From positions 82,793 through 146,792 of the forward strand of contig CASFUZ010000001.1 in assembly GCA_949298065.1 (NCBI GenBank): a stretch of 64,000 nt of DNA, in the 5' to 3' direction. Below, piece by piece: positions 6,834 through 62,356 of this stretch. Under the pieces are notes generated by a model, which was not told the origin of the DNA, ran no database searches, and saw only the letters and a list, made by a program, of their open reading frames with translations. Every line of letters starts with the position of its first letter. Position 1 is the first letter of the stretch. Source of the stretch: an uncultured Pseudomonadota bacterium (GTDB taxonomy: Bacteria > Pseudomonadota > Alphaproteobacteria > RF32 > CAG-239). A program made the position numbers and the translations under genes.

Positions 6834-8255
6834 ATGTCAAACGAACAAGAGAAATTTTTATTAAAACTATCTACCAATCTCTACATCATAACCGATGAGG
6901 CCGGGATTATCAGCTATGCCAGTCCCAAAGCCGTATTGCTTTTTGGTTTTCCGGCCAATAAAGATATTGATATTTCACGTTTTTTAAACGAAGAAAATTG
7001 GTTAAATCTCAGGCTACATATAACTTCAGCCTTAGAAAGCAAAATTCCGGAATACTTCTCACTCAGACATCAAAACAGGGTTTTTAATGTCTATATTCAC
7101 AGTCAGGATGGTATGGCATACCAATGTTGGGAAGATATAACCGAGCGCCGCCAACTATCCCAAGCCTTGCATAGAACTTCAGAGCGCATAGAATTTGCCG
7201 AAAGAGCCACCAATGTTGGTTATTGGGAATTTGATATTCAAGCCAGAAGGCTTTACTGGTCCACAGAGATGTATAGGTTATTAGGTGTTGATGCCAGATA
7301 TATCTCCCATGAACAAAACATGACGCGTAATTATATCTTACCGGAAGATTATCCTGCATATAAGAACCAATTGCATGAGATGATTCGCACGGGAGAGCCG
7401 GCAGAAGGAATTTTGCGCTTACGCAGAGCAGATGATAAAATTATTTATTGCTCATACAAATCTGCTTTTTTCCGAGACGGAGAAAGAAACAAAATTGCAG
7501 GCATCTTTCAAAACATAACCAAATTGATAGAGATGCAACAAGATTTGGAAAAAGCACGAGAAAGCGCCGAAGCCTCCAACCGCTCAAAATCATATTTTTT
7601 AGCCCAAGCCAGCCACGACTTAAGACAACCGATGTTGGCTTTGCGCATTTTTGTATCAGCCCTAGAGGAAGAACCACTTAGCCCTCATCAAAAGGATCTT
7701 TTGAACAAGCTTTCATCTTCGGCCAATAATCTAACAACGATGTTGGATAATCTGCTGGATATGTCCAAGCTTGATTCAGATGGTTTCAAAACCCATGAAA
7801 ATATATTTAACATCTCAGATCTGCTTAAAAATATTTTCTTTGAATTTCACGAGATTGCTCGTTCCAGAGGCATAGAATTTCATACATCTCTCTGCCATTA
7901 TCGTGTCAGAAGCGATGCTTTGTTGATTGAACGAGTGATTCGCAACCTCCTAAGCAATGCCTTTAAGTTTACGCACAACAAAGTTCTGCTCGGCTGCAAA
8001 AGAGAAGATGATTATGTTCGCGTAATTGTTATGGATAATGGCGGCGGTATTGCTCCGGAAGAAATGGAAGGGATTTTTGATGAATTTTATCAAAGCAAAA
8101 ACATCAATGAGATTAATCGGAAAAAAGGAGCAGGTTTGGGTCTGGCAATAGTCCGCCGCATTTCGGATGCCTTGCATTTAGATATTCAGGTCAAGAGCAA
8201 ATTAGGCAAGGGGAGTAGCTTCAGCTTCAAATTACCGCTTGTCAAAGGTTCATAA
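6834..8255 (+). CDS. PAS-PAS histidine kinase, no receiver domain
   Basis: 473 residues from ATG 6834, just after the DUF4340 stop. Domains: an N-terminal PAS-like segment (about 10-100), a second PAS (about 120-240) ending in the PAC-like FRDGERNKIAGIFQNITK, a short coiled coil, a HisKA with H-box ASHDLRQPMLAL, then an HATPase with N-box NLLSNAFKFT, G1 DNGGGIAPEE and G2 GAGLGLAIV. It has no transmembrane segment, so it is a cytosolic sensor. The DLRQP H-box variant is common in PAS kinases and hybrid kinases. No response regulator is encoded nearby. It directly follows the ABC module and is probably co-transcribed, which suggests it senses or controls that system. Confidence 0.88.
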   Translation: MSNEQEKFLLKLSTNLYIITDEAGIISYASPKAVLLFGFPANKDIDISRFLNEENWLNLRLHITSALESKIPEYFSLRHQNRVFNVYIHSQDGMAYQCWEDITERRQLSQALHRTSERIEFAERATNVGYWEFDIQARRLYWSTEMYRLLGVDARYISHEQNMTRNYILPEDYPAYKNQLHEMIRTGEPAEGILRLRRADDKIIYCSYKSAFFRDGERNKIAGIFQNITKLIEMQQDLEKARESAEASNRSKSYFLAQASHDLRQPMLALRIFVSALEEEPLSPHQKDLLNKLSSSANNLTTMLDNLLDMSKLDSDGFKTHENIFNISDLLKNIFFEFHEIARSRGIEFHTSLCHYRVRSDALLIERVIRNLLSNAFKFTHNKVLLGCKREDDYVRVIVMDNGGGIAPEEMEGIFDEFYQSKNINEINRKKGAGLGLAIVRRISDALHLDIQVKSKLGKGSSFSFKLPLVKGS

Positions 8256-8257
8256 AA

Positions 8258-8277
8258 AAGCTCCCTTAGGGGAGCTT
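8258..8277 (-). terminator. Terminator of the LprI-like gene
   Basis: AAGCTCCC-TTAG-GGGAGCTT forms a perfect 8-bp hairpin. On the minus strand it is followed by six U. It begins 6 bases past the stop codon of the gene at 8283 and may also stop plus-strand transcripts of the kinase operon weakly. Confidence 0.85.
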
Positions 8278-8282
8278 AAAAT

Positions 8283-8738
8283 TTACTCTGGATCATTTTT
8301 TGGGGCATCAATAACATTTTGAATCATCTGCAACTGTCTTTGAGTTAAATCCATAAGACACTGCTCTCTGTTATAATCGTCACTACCACCTGAATTTTTT
8401 GAAGCTTCAGTCAATAAATCACAATAGTTATTACGATAAACCAACCAAGCATTATAAGTATCACGAACACGCCCCTTAAACATTCCGTTACCATTATTCC
8501 ACGAAGCATAAGCTTTATCATTTGCAATTTGCGTATAAATTTTTTGGATTTCAGCCAACAAACGAGCAGATTCCTTTTTCATACAAATAGCATATTCATA
8601 ATCACCGACAGAGCCTGTTTTTTCCATAGCTCTGATACATTCATCAAAAGGATTTGATTTAGCAAAGGATGCACACCAAGCGTCATTGATAAAGAAAGAA
8701 ATAAGCACCAAAAAAGCCAAACAAAGAGATTTAAACAT
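8283..8738 (-). CDS. Exported LprI/DUF1311-like protein
   Basis: 151 residues with a signal peptide (MFKSLCLAFLVLISFFINDAWCA). The mature part has the DUF1311/LprI pattern: paired Cys in FDECIRAME and YAICMKKE, a YRNNYCDLL motif, then EQCLMDLTQRQLQMI. LprI-domain proteins are periplasmic, and some bind and inhibit lysozyme. The start has AAAAGG seven bases upstream. It is monocistronic, with its own terminator and a divergent gene upstream. Family membership is likely; the inhibitory role is only an inference. Confidence 0.65.
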   Translation of the reverse strand: MFKSLCLAFLVLISFFINDAWCASFAKSNPFDECIRAMEKTGSVGDYEYAICMKKESARLLAEIQKIYTQIANDKAYASWNNGNGMFKGRVRDTYNAWLVYRNNYCDLLTEASKNSGGSDDYNREQCLMDLTQRQLQMIQNVIDAPKNDPE

Positions 8739-8828
8739 AAAAAAAACCTTTTCTAAAACTTTACAATGTCATTATTTTATGCGAACTTATAAAAAAGTCA
8801 ACGAAGTTTGCACAACGGAGGAAATAAT

Positions 8829-9449
8829 ATGGATAATGTATCAAGCATAGCCGAACTTATAGCCATAAGCTGGGAATATATCAGCAAACTTTTAAGCTTT
8901 GTAAATATTCGCAATGAAGGTTATGCCATAATCAAACGCCGTTGGGGAAAACCGATAAAAGTATATGACTTATCCGAGAGATGGTGTTGGAAATGGCCTA
9001 TTGCCGAAAAATTTGATGTTGTAGATATCAGGAAACAAGTAATATATCTTAATGCGCATTCCGTTAAAAATGATGATAGTAGCCAAAAACTAATACCTTT
9101 TAACACAACAATAGATGCCCAATGTGAGTTCCGCATCGTCAATCCGAATGTTATTTATAAGATTTCGGATGATATTGTAAAAACAGAGAACAACTATACC
9201 ACAATTGAAAGTTATGTAGATAATACGGTTCATATTTTAATTTCGCGGATAATTTGTGAAAACGGCTTATCAAACATTAGCAATGCCAACATTCAAAAGC
9301 TTATGGATAAAGAGCTTGCTAAACATAATAAAGGCCATCCGCAAGGTTTTGAAAAAGATTTTGATTTTAAGGTCAGCCACGCTATTTTGATAGAAAATGT
9401 GGTTATTGTATCCTTTGATAATAATATATCTCTGCGCCAAACAGAGTAG
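8829..9449 (+). CDS. SPFH/Band-7-like protein
   Basis: 206 residues from ATG 8829, preceded by GGAGGAAATAAT. The segment NEGYAIIKRRWGKPIKVY, then FDVVDIRKQVI and DAQCEFRIVNPNVIYKI, follows the Band-7 pattern seen in stomatin-like proteins, and helix-rich sequence follows. It has no clear transmembrane helix, only a hydrophobic N-terminal stretch (ELIAISWEYISKLLSFV) that could associate with a membrane. Band-7 proteins scaffold membrane microdomains or proteases. No NfeD or protease partner is nearby. The assignment is from pattern recognition and is moderately secure. Confidence 0.55.
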   Translation: MDNVSSIAELIAISWEYISKLLSFVNIRNEGYAIIKRRWGKPIKVYDLSERWCWKWPIAEKFDVVDIRKQVIYLNAHSVKNDDSSQKLIPFNTTIDAQCEFRIVNPNVIYKISDDIVKTENNYTTIESYVDNTVHILISRIICENGLSNISNANIQKLMDKELAKHNKGHPQGFEKDFDFKVSHAILIENVVIVSFDNNISLRQTE

Positions 9450-60922: not shown

Positions 60923-61066
60923 AAAACAAACGTTTTAAGGATTAAACATAAAAAATCTATAATCACAAAATACAGGGACACTTATAACGCTAGTTTACAG
61001 ATATTTCAAGATTTTTGTACAAATATATTATATTCCTCGGATCAAATAACATTGATTTAAAAACAG

Positions 61067-61092
61067 AAAAACGACCCTAAAAGGTCGTTTTT
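61067..61092. terminator. Terminator next to the tRNA-Ser fragment
   Basis: AAAAACGACC-CTAAAA-GGTCGTTTTT, a perfect 10-bp hairpin. On the minus strand it directly follows the tRNA 3' fragment, exactly where terminators lie after the two intact tRNA genes in this window. Confidence 0.85.
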
Positions 61093-61099
61093 CTTTAAT

Positions 61100-61117
61100 T
61101 GGCGGAGAGGCAGAGAT
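61100..61117 (-). repeat. tRNA-Ser 3'-end fragment, putative att site
   Basis: On the minus strand the sequence reads ATCTCTGCCTCTCCGCCA, like the end of a bacterial tRNA-Ser (CCTCTCC acceptor strand, discriminator G, CCA). The rest of a tRNA is absent. It differs from the tRNA-Ser(GCT) gene at 34945, so it would come from another serine isoacceptor. Typical of the short att copy left when an integrative element inserts into a tRNA gene. Confidence 0.65.
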
Positions 61118-61375
61118 AATTTGCCAACGCCATTATAACACATTGTAAAACCCAAATATTTTTATTTTTCATTTTTTTAAATATGCTATTTTGTAGCACG
61201 ATTCTGTAATACCCTAGAGTCTAAAAAAATTCAATATAAAATTTCCTAATTACAAAATTTAATGAAAAACAAATAAATAAAATTAGATGAATTTTATTTT
61301 TGCGTTGGTCTCAACGTATATGATATTATTCAAATATATACCAATTACAAAAGTTATATTTTGTATCACGAAAAC

Positions 61376-61660
61376 GGGGAAACAGGCCTTTTGACAGGCA
61401 CCCTCACGCAGGGAACAAACTGAAAACCTATGACGACTAATCCATTGGTATTAGCACCGCAAAATAACCCCTCCGAAGGCGGCTGGCGGAATATAAATAG
61501 GGCACGGCTGATGATGTCAGTTAGAAGTCGGGGCAATATCTGTGCTCATTGATAACCCCAGCATTTAAAATTTGGTTCTTGTTCGGATTTTAAATGTGCC
61601 AACCGGAAAAGCAGGTGGAAGGTTCGCATTGGCGGTGTGCGGATTTTAAGGAAACATACT
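61376..61660 (+). ncRNA. Candidate structured non-coding RNA, unknown family
   Basis: About 285 bases, clearly richer in G and C than the very AT-rich DNA on both sides, a usual sign of a structured RNA. Hairpins include GCCT/AGGC (61386-61399), CCCT/AGGG (61401-61413), CTAAT/ATTAG (61437-61454), CTGA/TCAG (61508-61520), GGGG..TATC/GATA..CCCC (61530-61559) and a perfect 10-bp CATTTAAAAT/ATTTTAAATG (61562-61596). A long-range CACCGC (61455)/GCGGTG (61632) pairing would close the 3' half. No long reading frame on either strand. It lacks RNase P, tmRNA, SRP and group II domain V motifs. Strand is assumed from the next gene. Confidence 0.55.
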
Positions 61661-61689
61661 TAATATAACCAAAACAAGAAAGCAAACTC

Positions 61690-61759
61690 AACGGATATGC
61701 TATACTCTTTTTTACCCTCTGTTTATGGGTAAAAAGAGCAAATCTAACGGATATACTAT
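61690..61759. repeat. Direct repeats flanking a hairpin
   Basis: AACGGATATGCTAT (61690-61703) and AACGGATATACTAT (61746-61759) flank an inverted repeat CTCTTTTTTACCC (61705-61717) / GGGTAAAAAGAG (61727-61738). The direct repeats differ at one base. TGCTATACT also resembles an extended -10 element. Could be an operator pair or a small insertion unit. Confidence 0.55.
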
Positions 61760-61806
61760 GAAAAATAAATTATCAAAAAAATAAATTAAGAAAAAAAATT
61801 AAATGA

Positions 61807-61857
61807 GCAATCAAAGATTGCGAAATTTTGCCTGAACGAGCAAAGCGAGTTTAGGCA
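61807..61857 (+). repeat. Two consecutive hairpins before the DUF6626-like gene
   Basis: GCAATC-AAA-GATTGC (61807-61821) is followed by TGCCTGAACGAGC-AAA-GCGAGTTTAGGCA (61829-61857), the latter pairing with one G-U and a tandem G-A mismatch. They lie about 30 bases before the gene and could be leader structures. Confidence 0.6.
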
Positions 61858-61885: not shown

Positions 61886-62356
61886 ATGAATTTAGAGAAA
61901 ACCGCCATAAATGACCGCATAGAAGCCATAATGAAGGATAATGAGTCAATCAACAGCAAATTAAAATACACCTCACCAGCGAACGAAAAAAAGGCATTAC
62001 AAGATAAAAAAGCCAAAAACAATAACGAATTAAGAAAAGAAAGAACAAAACGCTATAATTTAGAACAAGAAGATGCCGAATTTATTAGAGAATGCTGTCA
62101 ATATCTTCAAAAATTAGGGATAGTAAAAAGCCAAAGGCAATTCAGCCAGCAATTTTTGAGTAAAAGCCAAGATTATTTGGGTATGTTGATTTGCGAAAGA
62201 AGACAACCACCAATTAACATATTGCACCGCCTTGTCCAAAATCTGATTCAAATTCAGCCAATTTATGAAGACAAATACACCATCAACAATTATTTAGATA
62301 TTCTCATTAACCGAGGTAATCAAATAATCACAAAAAAATTGCTTAAATATCTATAA
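61886..62356 (+). CDS. DUF6626-like small protein
   Basis: 156 residues, with AAAAAAGGAGAATAA before the ATG. The N-terminal ~65 residues are charged and probably coiled coil (NSKLKYTSPANEKKALQDKK). The C-terminal part has LQKLGIVKSQRQFSQQFLSKSQDYLGMLICERRQPP, recognisable by GIVKSQRQFSQQFL and KSQDYLGMLICERR, which resembles the DUF6626 helix-turn-helix-like family of alphaproteobacteria. It may bind DNA. Lys/Asn-rich composition differs from the core genes. The family call is tentative. Confidence 0.55.
   Translation: MNLEKTAINDRIEAIMKDNESINSKLKYTSPANEKKALQDKKAKNNNELRKERTKRYNLEQEDAEFIRECCQYLQKLGIVKSQRQFSQQFLSKSQDYLGMLICERRQPPINILHRLVQNLIQIQPIYEDKYTINNYLDILINRGNQIITKKLLKYL

What the first reader, a model, noticed from the sequence alone, without database searches (positions are those of the whole stretch)
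61376..61660. Structured RNA candidate inside an AT-rich genomic island
A ~285-base segment is distinctly GC-richer than both AT-rich flanks, has no coding frame, and folds into at least six local hairpins plus a possible long-range CACCGC/GCGGTG pairing. I cannot match it to RNase P, tmRNA, SRP RNA, 6S, group I or group II intron cores. It sits just upstream of a DUF6626-like gene and next to a tRNA att-like site, which resembles the setting of large ornate RNAs carried by mobile elements. This is the best candidate for an undescribed system in the window.
Basis: partly seen in the sequence, partly recalled or inferred. Interest (0 to 1): 0.8.

Follow-up and report, generated by a model that had tools for sequence, protein, structure and literature searches.

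The report
New structured RNA on mobile islands
The stretch is a real, previously uncatalogued structured RNA with two pseudoknots, carried by mobile DNA islands that sit in tRNA genes of gut alphaproteobacteria; what it does is not yet known.

Summary
The segment is a conserved non-coding RNA unit, but longer than reported: window ~61338-61760, perhaps to 61857, instead of 61376-61660. Eight of 152 genomes of the host's family carry it, in elements inserted at different tRNA genes. A covariance model built from these finds full-length relatives in three genomes of a second alphaproteobacterial family (E about 1e-14 to 1e-16). In the first family alone 22 base pairs change on both sides (shuffled mean 9.7; 0 of 500 shuffles reach it). 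Two pseudoknots also change in a compensatory way between sequences. A 3' hairpin between direct repeats occurs in exactly the eight RNA-bearing genomes and only there. No Rfam family matches. The RNA is not coding: indels of 1-8 bases, and substitutions spread evenly over codon positions. Corrections: folding energy is no better than chance, and the proposed CACCGC/GCGGTG pairing is contradicted by homologues. It is not a DUF6626 leader, since that gene lies downstream in only two of the contexts. Some copies persist without integrase or resolvase. I judge it a stand-alone RNA of integrative elements, most like GOLLD/ROOL in setting but unrelated in sequence. Its mechanism is inferred, not shown.

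The parts
61097..61117 (.). att direct repeat (AATTGGCGGAGAGGCAGAGAT), left end of the island; the other copy is the 3' end of tRNA-Ser(TGA) outside the window
61297..61324 (+). promoter-like sequence TTTTTG-N16-TATGAT upstream of the RNA; similar spacing in G106, G105 and G156
   Evidence: sequences; by eye, not tested experimentally
61338..61683 (+). structured RNA core (332 model positions to 61667, then the 3' strand of pseudoknot 2)
61338..61345 (+). PK1 5' strand AUACCAAU, pairs with AUUGGUAU at 61444-61451; second family CUCCAA/UUGGAG and CCAGC/GCUGG
61346..61365 (+). 5' hairpin, 7 pairs, 5 with compensatory change
61561..61599 (+). long hairpin (GCAUUUAAAA...UUUUAAAUGUGC); its loop carries UUCUUGUU (61576-61583), the 5' strand of PK2
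61621..61645 (+). hairpin with loop around UUGGCGGUG; stem covaries
61673..61680 (+). PK2 3' strand AACAAGAA; G105 UUCUAUU/AAUAGAA; second family UUCUUAU/AUAAGAA
61682..61759 (+). 3' module: direct repeat GCAAACTCAACGGATATGCTAT, hairpin CTCTTTTTTACCC/GGGTAAAAAGAG (61705-61738), direct repeat GCAAATCTAACGGATATACTAT
61808..61857 (+). further two-hairpin motif (CAATCAAAGATTG; TGCCTGAAC...GTTTAGGCA), analogous hairpins in G106, G105, G156 and the second family, absent in G021
61886..62356 (+). DUF6626 gene (156 aa); neighbour, not a constant partner

Best explanation
This is a new class of structured non-coding RNA. It has a folded core of about 345 nt with some 13 helices and two pseudoknots, followed by a 3' hairpin set between direct repeats. 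It is probably transcribed from its own promoter near 61300-61325. Integrative elements inserted in tRNA genes of gut Alphaproteobacteria carry it. Structure, homology and setting are shown. The mechanism I think most likely is inferred: the RNA acts in trans as a stand-alone RNA or RNP scaffold that works with a conserved host factor and serves the upkeep of the element, rather than as a leader of one gene or the guide of one recombinase. It has no constant protein partner in the elements, and copies persist in genomes where no integrase or resolvase is found nearby.
For: Eight of 152 family genomes carry it, and three of 43 in a second family. Covariation: 22 pairs changed on both sides vs 9.7 shuffled, 0/500, and at most 3 when partners are slid; 6 stems with 2 or more covarying pairs vs at most 3 in 25 column shuffles. 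PK1 and PK2 show compensatory change (G105). The 3' hairpin occurs in exactly the 8 RNA-bearing genomes and nowhere else in the 152. Not coding. Elements differ in integrase type and tRNA target. Apparently solo copies: G021, 788 bp between tRNA-Thr repeats, and G559. G519 and G559 copies are 97.1% identical vs 91-93% at third codon positions of three neighbouring genes.
Against: No transcript was observed. The trans mode and the host factor are inferred from the absence of a constant partner; an unknown partner gene elsewhere in the genome would look the same. In G519/G559 the upstream intergenic DNA is also 98% identical, so selection on the RNA alone is not proven. G021 could be a recent deletion remnant, and its upstream promoter-like sequence is not preserved. 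Only about eight distinct sequences exist.
Confidence: 0.5

Rival explanations
1. It is a DNA-level and RNA-primed control region of the element, such as a replication or transfer origin: the transcript primes replication (as ColE1 RNA II does) and the direct-repeat/hairpin module is the origin. The elements carry small resolvases but no recognised replication or relaxase gene.
For: Direct repeats around a hairpin persist in both families. Small serine resolvases are common in the RNA-bearing elements and could resolve multimers of a circular form. A four-base block inside both repeats changes together between elements (GGAT, TTGG, GAAA, GGAA).
Against: The extensive covariation and two pseudoknots demand a folded RNA through about 345 nt. 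Copies persist where no mobility genes are found nearby. The hairpin loop varies in sequence and length, and resA-type resolvases occur in 110 of 152 genomes.
Confidence: 0.17
2. It is the RNA part of an RNP with an element protein such as DUF6626 or the small resolvase.
For: In the first family every context with enough sequence also has a DUF6626 gene and, except for the truncated G119 and G038 contigs, a resolvase.
Against: The other DUF6626 loci and resA loci have no RNA within the roughly 1.5 kb on either side that was searched. Neither protein was found in the G021, G519 or G559 stretches by tblastn.
Confidence: 0.15
3. It is a cis-regulatory leader of the DUF6626 gene.
For: In G000-type elements and G156 the DUF6626 gene follows the RNA on the same strand.
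Against: In G106 and G105 the gene lies about 2 kb upstream of the RNA and a convergent resolvase follows it. G021 and the second family have no DUF6626 there.
Confidence: 0.05
4. It is a guide RNA for a recombinase or nuclease, as in bridge RNA or omega RNA systems.
For: Size, mobile setting and pseudoknots; the repeats hold a short block that differs between elements.
Against: I saw no IS110, IscB or TnpB protein among the ORFs around the RNA (read by eye; the Pfam scans covered only selected ORFs). Recombinase type differs between elements while the RNA stays.
Confidence: 0.05

Closest known systems
GOLLD and ROOL RNAs
   Same: Large, elaborately folded non-coding RNAs on mobile elements, often near tRNAs, function unknown (PMC12286853)
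   Different: No Rfam match. ROOL (659-nt example) and GOLLD (many over 800 nt) are larger and sit in phages and prophages; here I noticed no phage structural genes among the island ORFs, and there is no hit in phage records or viral contigs
PLE satellite IIR transcript
   Same: Abundant non-coding transcript of a small element (PMC7567579)
   Different: It is flanked by inverted repeats and has antisense homology to leaders; here the repeats are direct, and antisense targets were not searched for
ColE1 RNA II type primers (from own knowledge)
   Same: Structured RNA of several hundred nt upstream of a putative origin, no replication protein needed
   Different: No Rfam match in the core; no evidence of replication
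HEARO / omega RNA of IscB (from own knowledge)
   Same: About 300 nt structured RNA on a mobile element
   Different: No IscB or TnpB gene noticed adjacent; no Rfam match

Membership tests
GOLLD | match to the Rfam covariance model | tested here: not met
   No match at gathering score or up to E 10; homologues up to E 1
ROOL | match to the Rfam covariance model | tested here: not met
GOLLD/ROOL-like kind | large covarying fold on a mobile element near tRNA | tested here: met
GOLLD/ROOL-like kind | carried by phage or prophage, induced on lysis, forms RNA-only cages | tested here: inconclusive
   No phage or viral contig hit; expression and assembly not testable here
Group I or II intron, RNase P, tmRNA, SRP, 6S | match to Rfam models | tested here: not met
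   ARAGORN finds no tmRNA
DUF6626 leader | RNA always upstream of the gene on the same strand | tested here: not met
omega RNA (HEARO) | adjacent IscB or TnpB gene | tested here: inconclusive
   None noticed among the ORFs listed around the RNA, but not all were scanned against Pfam
ColE1-type primer RNA | autonomous replication from the downstream site | not testable with these tools
   needs an experiment

The most novel reading that the evidence does not exclude
The RNA is itself the mobile unit: 0.8-kb elements that hold nothing but this RNA between tRNA att repeats (as in G021) are moved by integrases in trans, and the RNA with its repeat-hairpin module is what recruits them or secures its own upkeep.
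Probability: 0.1. Interest if true: 0.85.

Novelty: new variant of a known kind. Interest (0 to 1): 0.62.

Why it matters
Few large bacterial RNAs with complex folds are known, and most lack a known function. This is a further class with no detectable relation to them, small enough (about 345-420 nt) for structure work. Its carriers are small and well delimited, and some copies stand alone, so its role could be tested without the rest of the element. It also shows that single-sequence folding energy can miss such RNAs (z = +0.75) while comparison finds them at once.

Tried and rejected
Single-sequence folding: no signal on either strand. Long-range CACCGC/GCGGTG: contradicted by homologues. 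Protein on the minus strand (56-aa ORF; open frames in some homologues): rejected, since substitutions fall 9/10/8 on codon positions, indels are not multiples of three, and by eye the open frame in the second family is a different one. G014 match: a 22-base match inside a coding gene. G534 match (E 4e-4): lies inside an ORF, chance. Viral contig candidates from a short pattern: two weak model matches at E about 1e-3, not followed further because searches showed a match of about that strength to be chance. Phage, plasmid and viral collections: none. RNA near other DUF6626 or resA genes: none. Broader phylum sample with the second model: nothing beyond the own genome. PK1 columns were mis-set; that helix was then checked by sequence.

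Full report
What was checked. The segment 61376-61660 is richer in GC than its surroundings (about 0.41-0.45 against 0.24-0.28). Rfam gives nothing there at gathering scores, and with E up to 10 only weak matches outside the RNA core. The energy of its best fold is ordinary (z +0.75 on the plus strand, +0.71 on the minus strand), so a single sequence would not justify the claim. The neighbour at 61886-62356 does match DUF6626.

Homologues. A nucleotide search finds the segment only once in its own genome. In the 152 genomes of the same family, eight carry it: G000, G126, G119 and G038 almost identical, and G106, G156, G021 and G105 at 78-83%. The conserved stretch starts at 61338 and runs to about 61790. 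The near-identical copies lie in different genera, so the element has probably moved recently.

Structure. RNAalifold on the alignment gives 100 pairs, 25 with compensatory change. A scan that assumes no fold finds six stems with at least two covarying pairs; 25 column shuffles give at most three. For a named structure, 22 pairs change on both sides against 9.7 in shuffles, none of 500 reaching it, and sliding the partners by 1-3 columns leaves at most 3. One helix in that call (PK1) was set one column off and counted as unpaired, so the true percentage paired is higher.

Second family. A covariance model (R1) recovers the eight copies. In 385 genomes sampled from the class it finds one more (G519, E 1.6e-14), and in that genome's family two further ones (G559, G563). 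All three match over the full model. They also keep, outside the model, a 3' hairpin between direct repeats (CTTTTTACC...GGTAAAAAGG between GCAACTT repeats). These copies support two pseudoknots. PK1 is AUACCAAU with AUUGGUAU in the first family, CUCCAA/UUGGAG in G563 and CCAGC/GCUGG in G559 and G519. PK2 is UUCUUGUU with AACAAGAA in the first family and UUCUUAU/AUAAGAA in the second. In G105 PK2 is UUCUAUU/AAUAGAA, read from the alignment because the script picked a wrong loop there (as it did for G106, whose sequence is the same as G000's). A weaker match, G534 at E 4e-4, is inside a gene and is chance. With the improved model nothing more appears in a phylum sample.

The 3' module. The hairpin TTTTTACC...GGTAAAAAGAGC occurs in exactly the eight RNA-bearing genomes of the family, once each and at the RNA, so it belongs to the same unit. 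The direct repeats around it hold a block of four bases that differs between elements but is the same in both repeats (GGAT, TTGG, GAAA, GGAA; one mismatch in G119). I cannot explain this.

Not a protein. Gaps among the aligned homologues are 1, 2, 4 and 8 bases, and substitutions between G000 and G156 in the 56-aa minus-strand ORF of G000 are spread 9/10/8 over the codon positions.

Setting. In G000 the island is bounded by a 21-bp repeat at 61097-61117 and by the 3' end of tRNA-Ser(TGA) about 7.6 kb on. It holds DUF6626, SHOCT-domain proteins, two small serine resolvases and a tyrosine integrase with a DUF6538 domain. G156 has a large serine integrase ending at tRNA-Leu and restriction-modification genes. 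G105 has a tRNA-Lys close by. G021 has only the RNA between two copies of the tRNA-Thr 3' end, 788 bp apart. In G559 no element gene was found nearby, and G519 has the RNA between the same chromosomal neighbours, with an integrase about 5 kb away. The partner question is therefore open: DUF6626 and the resolvases accompany most copies in the first family, but neither is constant, and resA-type resolvases occur in 110 of 152 genomes.

Interpretation. That this is a folded RNA class of its own I hold at about 0.95. How it works is inference. A leader of DUF6626 is excluded as a general role. A primer or origin function and an RNP with an element protein remain possible. I favour a stand-alone trans-acting RNA that uses host machinery, because the RNA survives changes of integrase, of cargo and of insertion site, and in places is found without any of them. 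In G519/G559 it is more conserved (97.1%) than third codon positions of three neighbouring genes (91-93%), but the adjoining intergenic DNA is also 98% identical, so this is weak support.

Compared with known RNAs, the nearest in setting are GOLLD and ROOL (PMC12286853) and the ncRNA of PLE satellites (PMC7567579). No sequence or model match links it to GOLLD or ROOL. A large survey of human microbiome RNAs reports candidates of only 27-219 bases (PMC8040213), so an RNA of this length would not have been among them as a whole.

Noticed in passing
window 61693-61696 and 61749-61752; same places in L020-L023: A four-base block inside the two direct repeats around the 3' hairpin varies between elements (GGAT, TTGG, GAAA, GGAA) but is the same in both repeats of each; G119 has one mismatch. 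Unexplained.
   Followed up: partly
L047 (G021:C94), about 8215-9030: A 788-bp unit between two copies of the tRNA-Thr 3' end (CTCTGTCGGCACCAT) holds only the RNA: a mini-element or a deletion remnant.
   Followed up: partly
window 61808-61857; L044 from 4467; L045; L046; L103: A second two-hairpin motif follows the RNA in nearly all copies, also in the second family, and may be its 3' end.
   Followed up: partly
L023 (G105) against L020 (G106): The 3' domain of the RNA is only 76.6% identical between these two relatives while the rest is about 95%; helices and PK2 are kept by compensatory changes.
   Followed up: partly
family genomes, e.g. L108-L137: A small serine resolvase (resA) is present in 110 of 152 genomes of the family, often in several copies.
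   Followed up: no
window 61064-61092: Terminator-like hairpin AAAAACGACC/GGTCGTTTTT just outside the att repeat, in the chromosomal flank.
   Followed up: no
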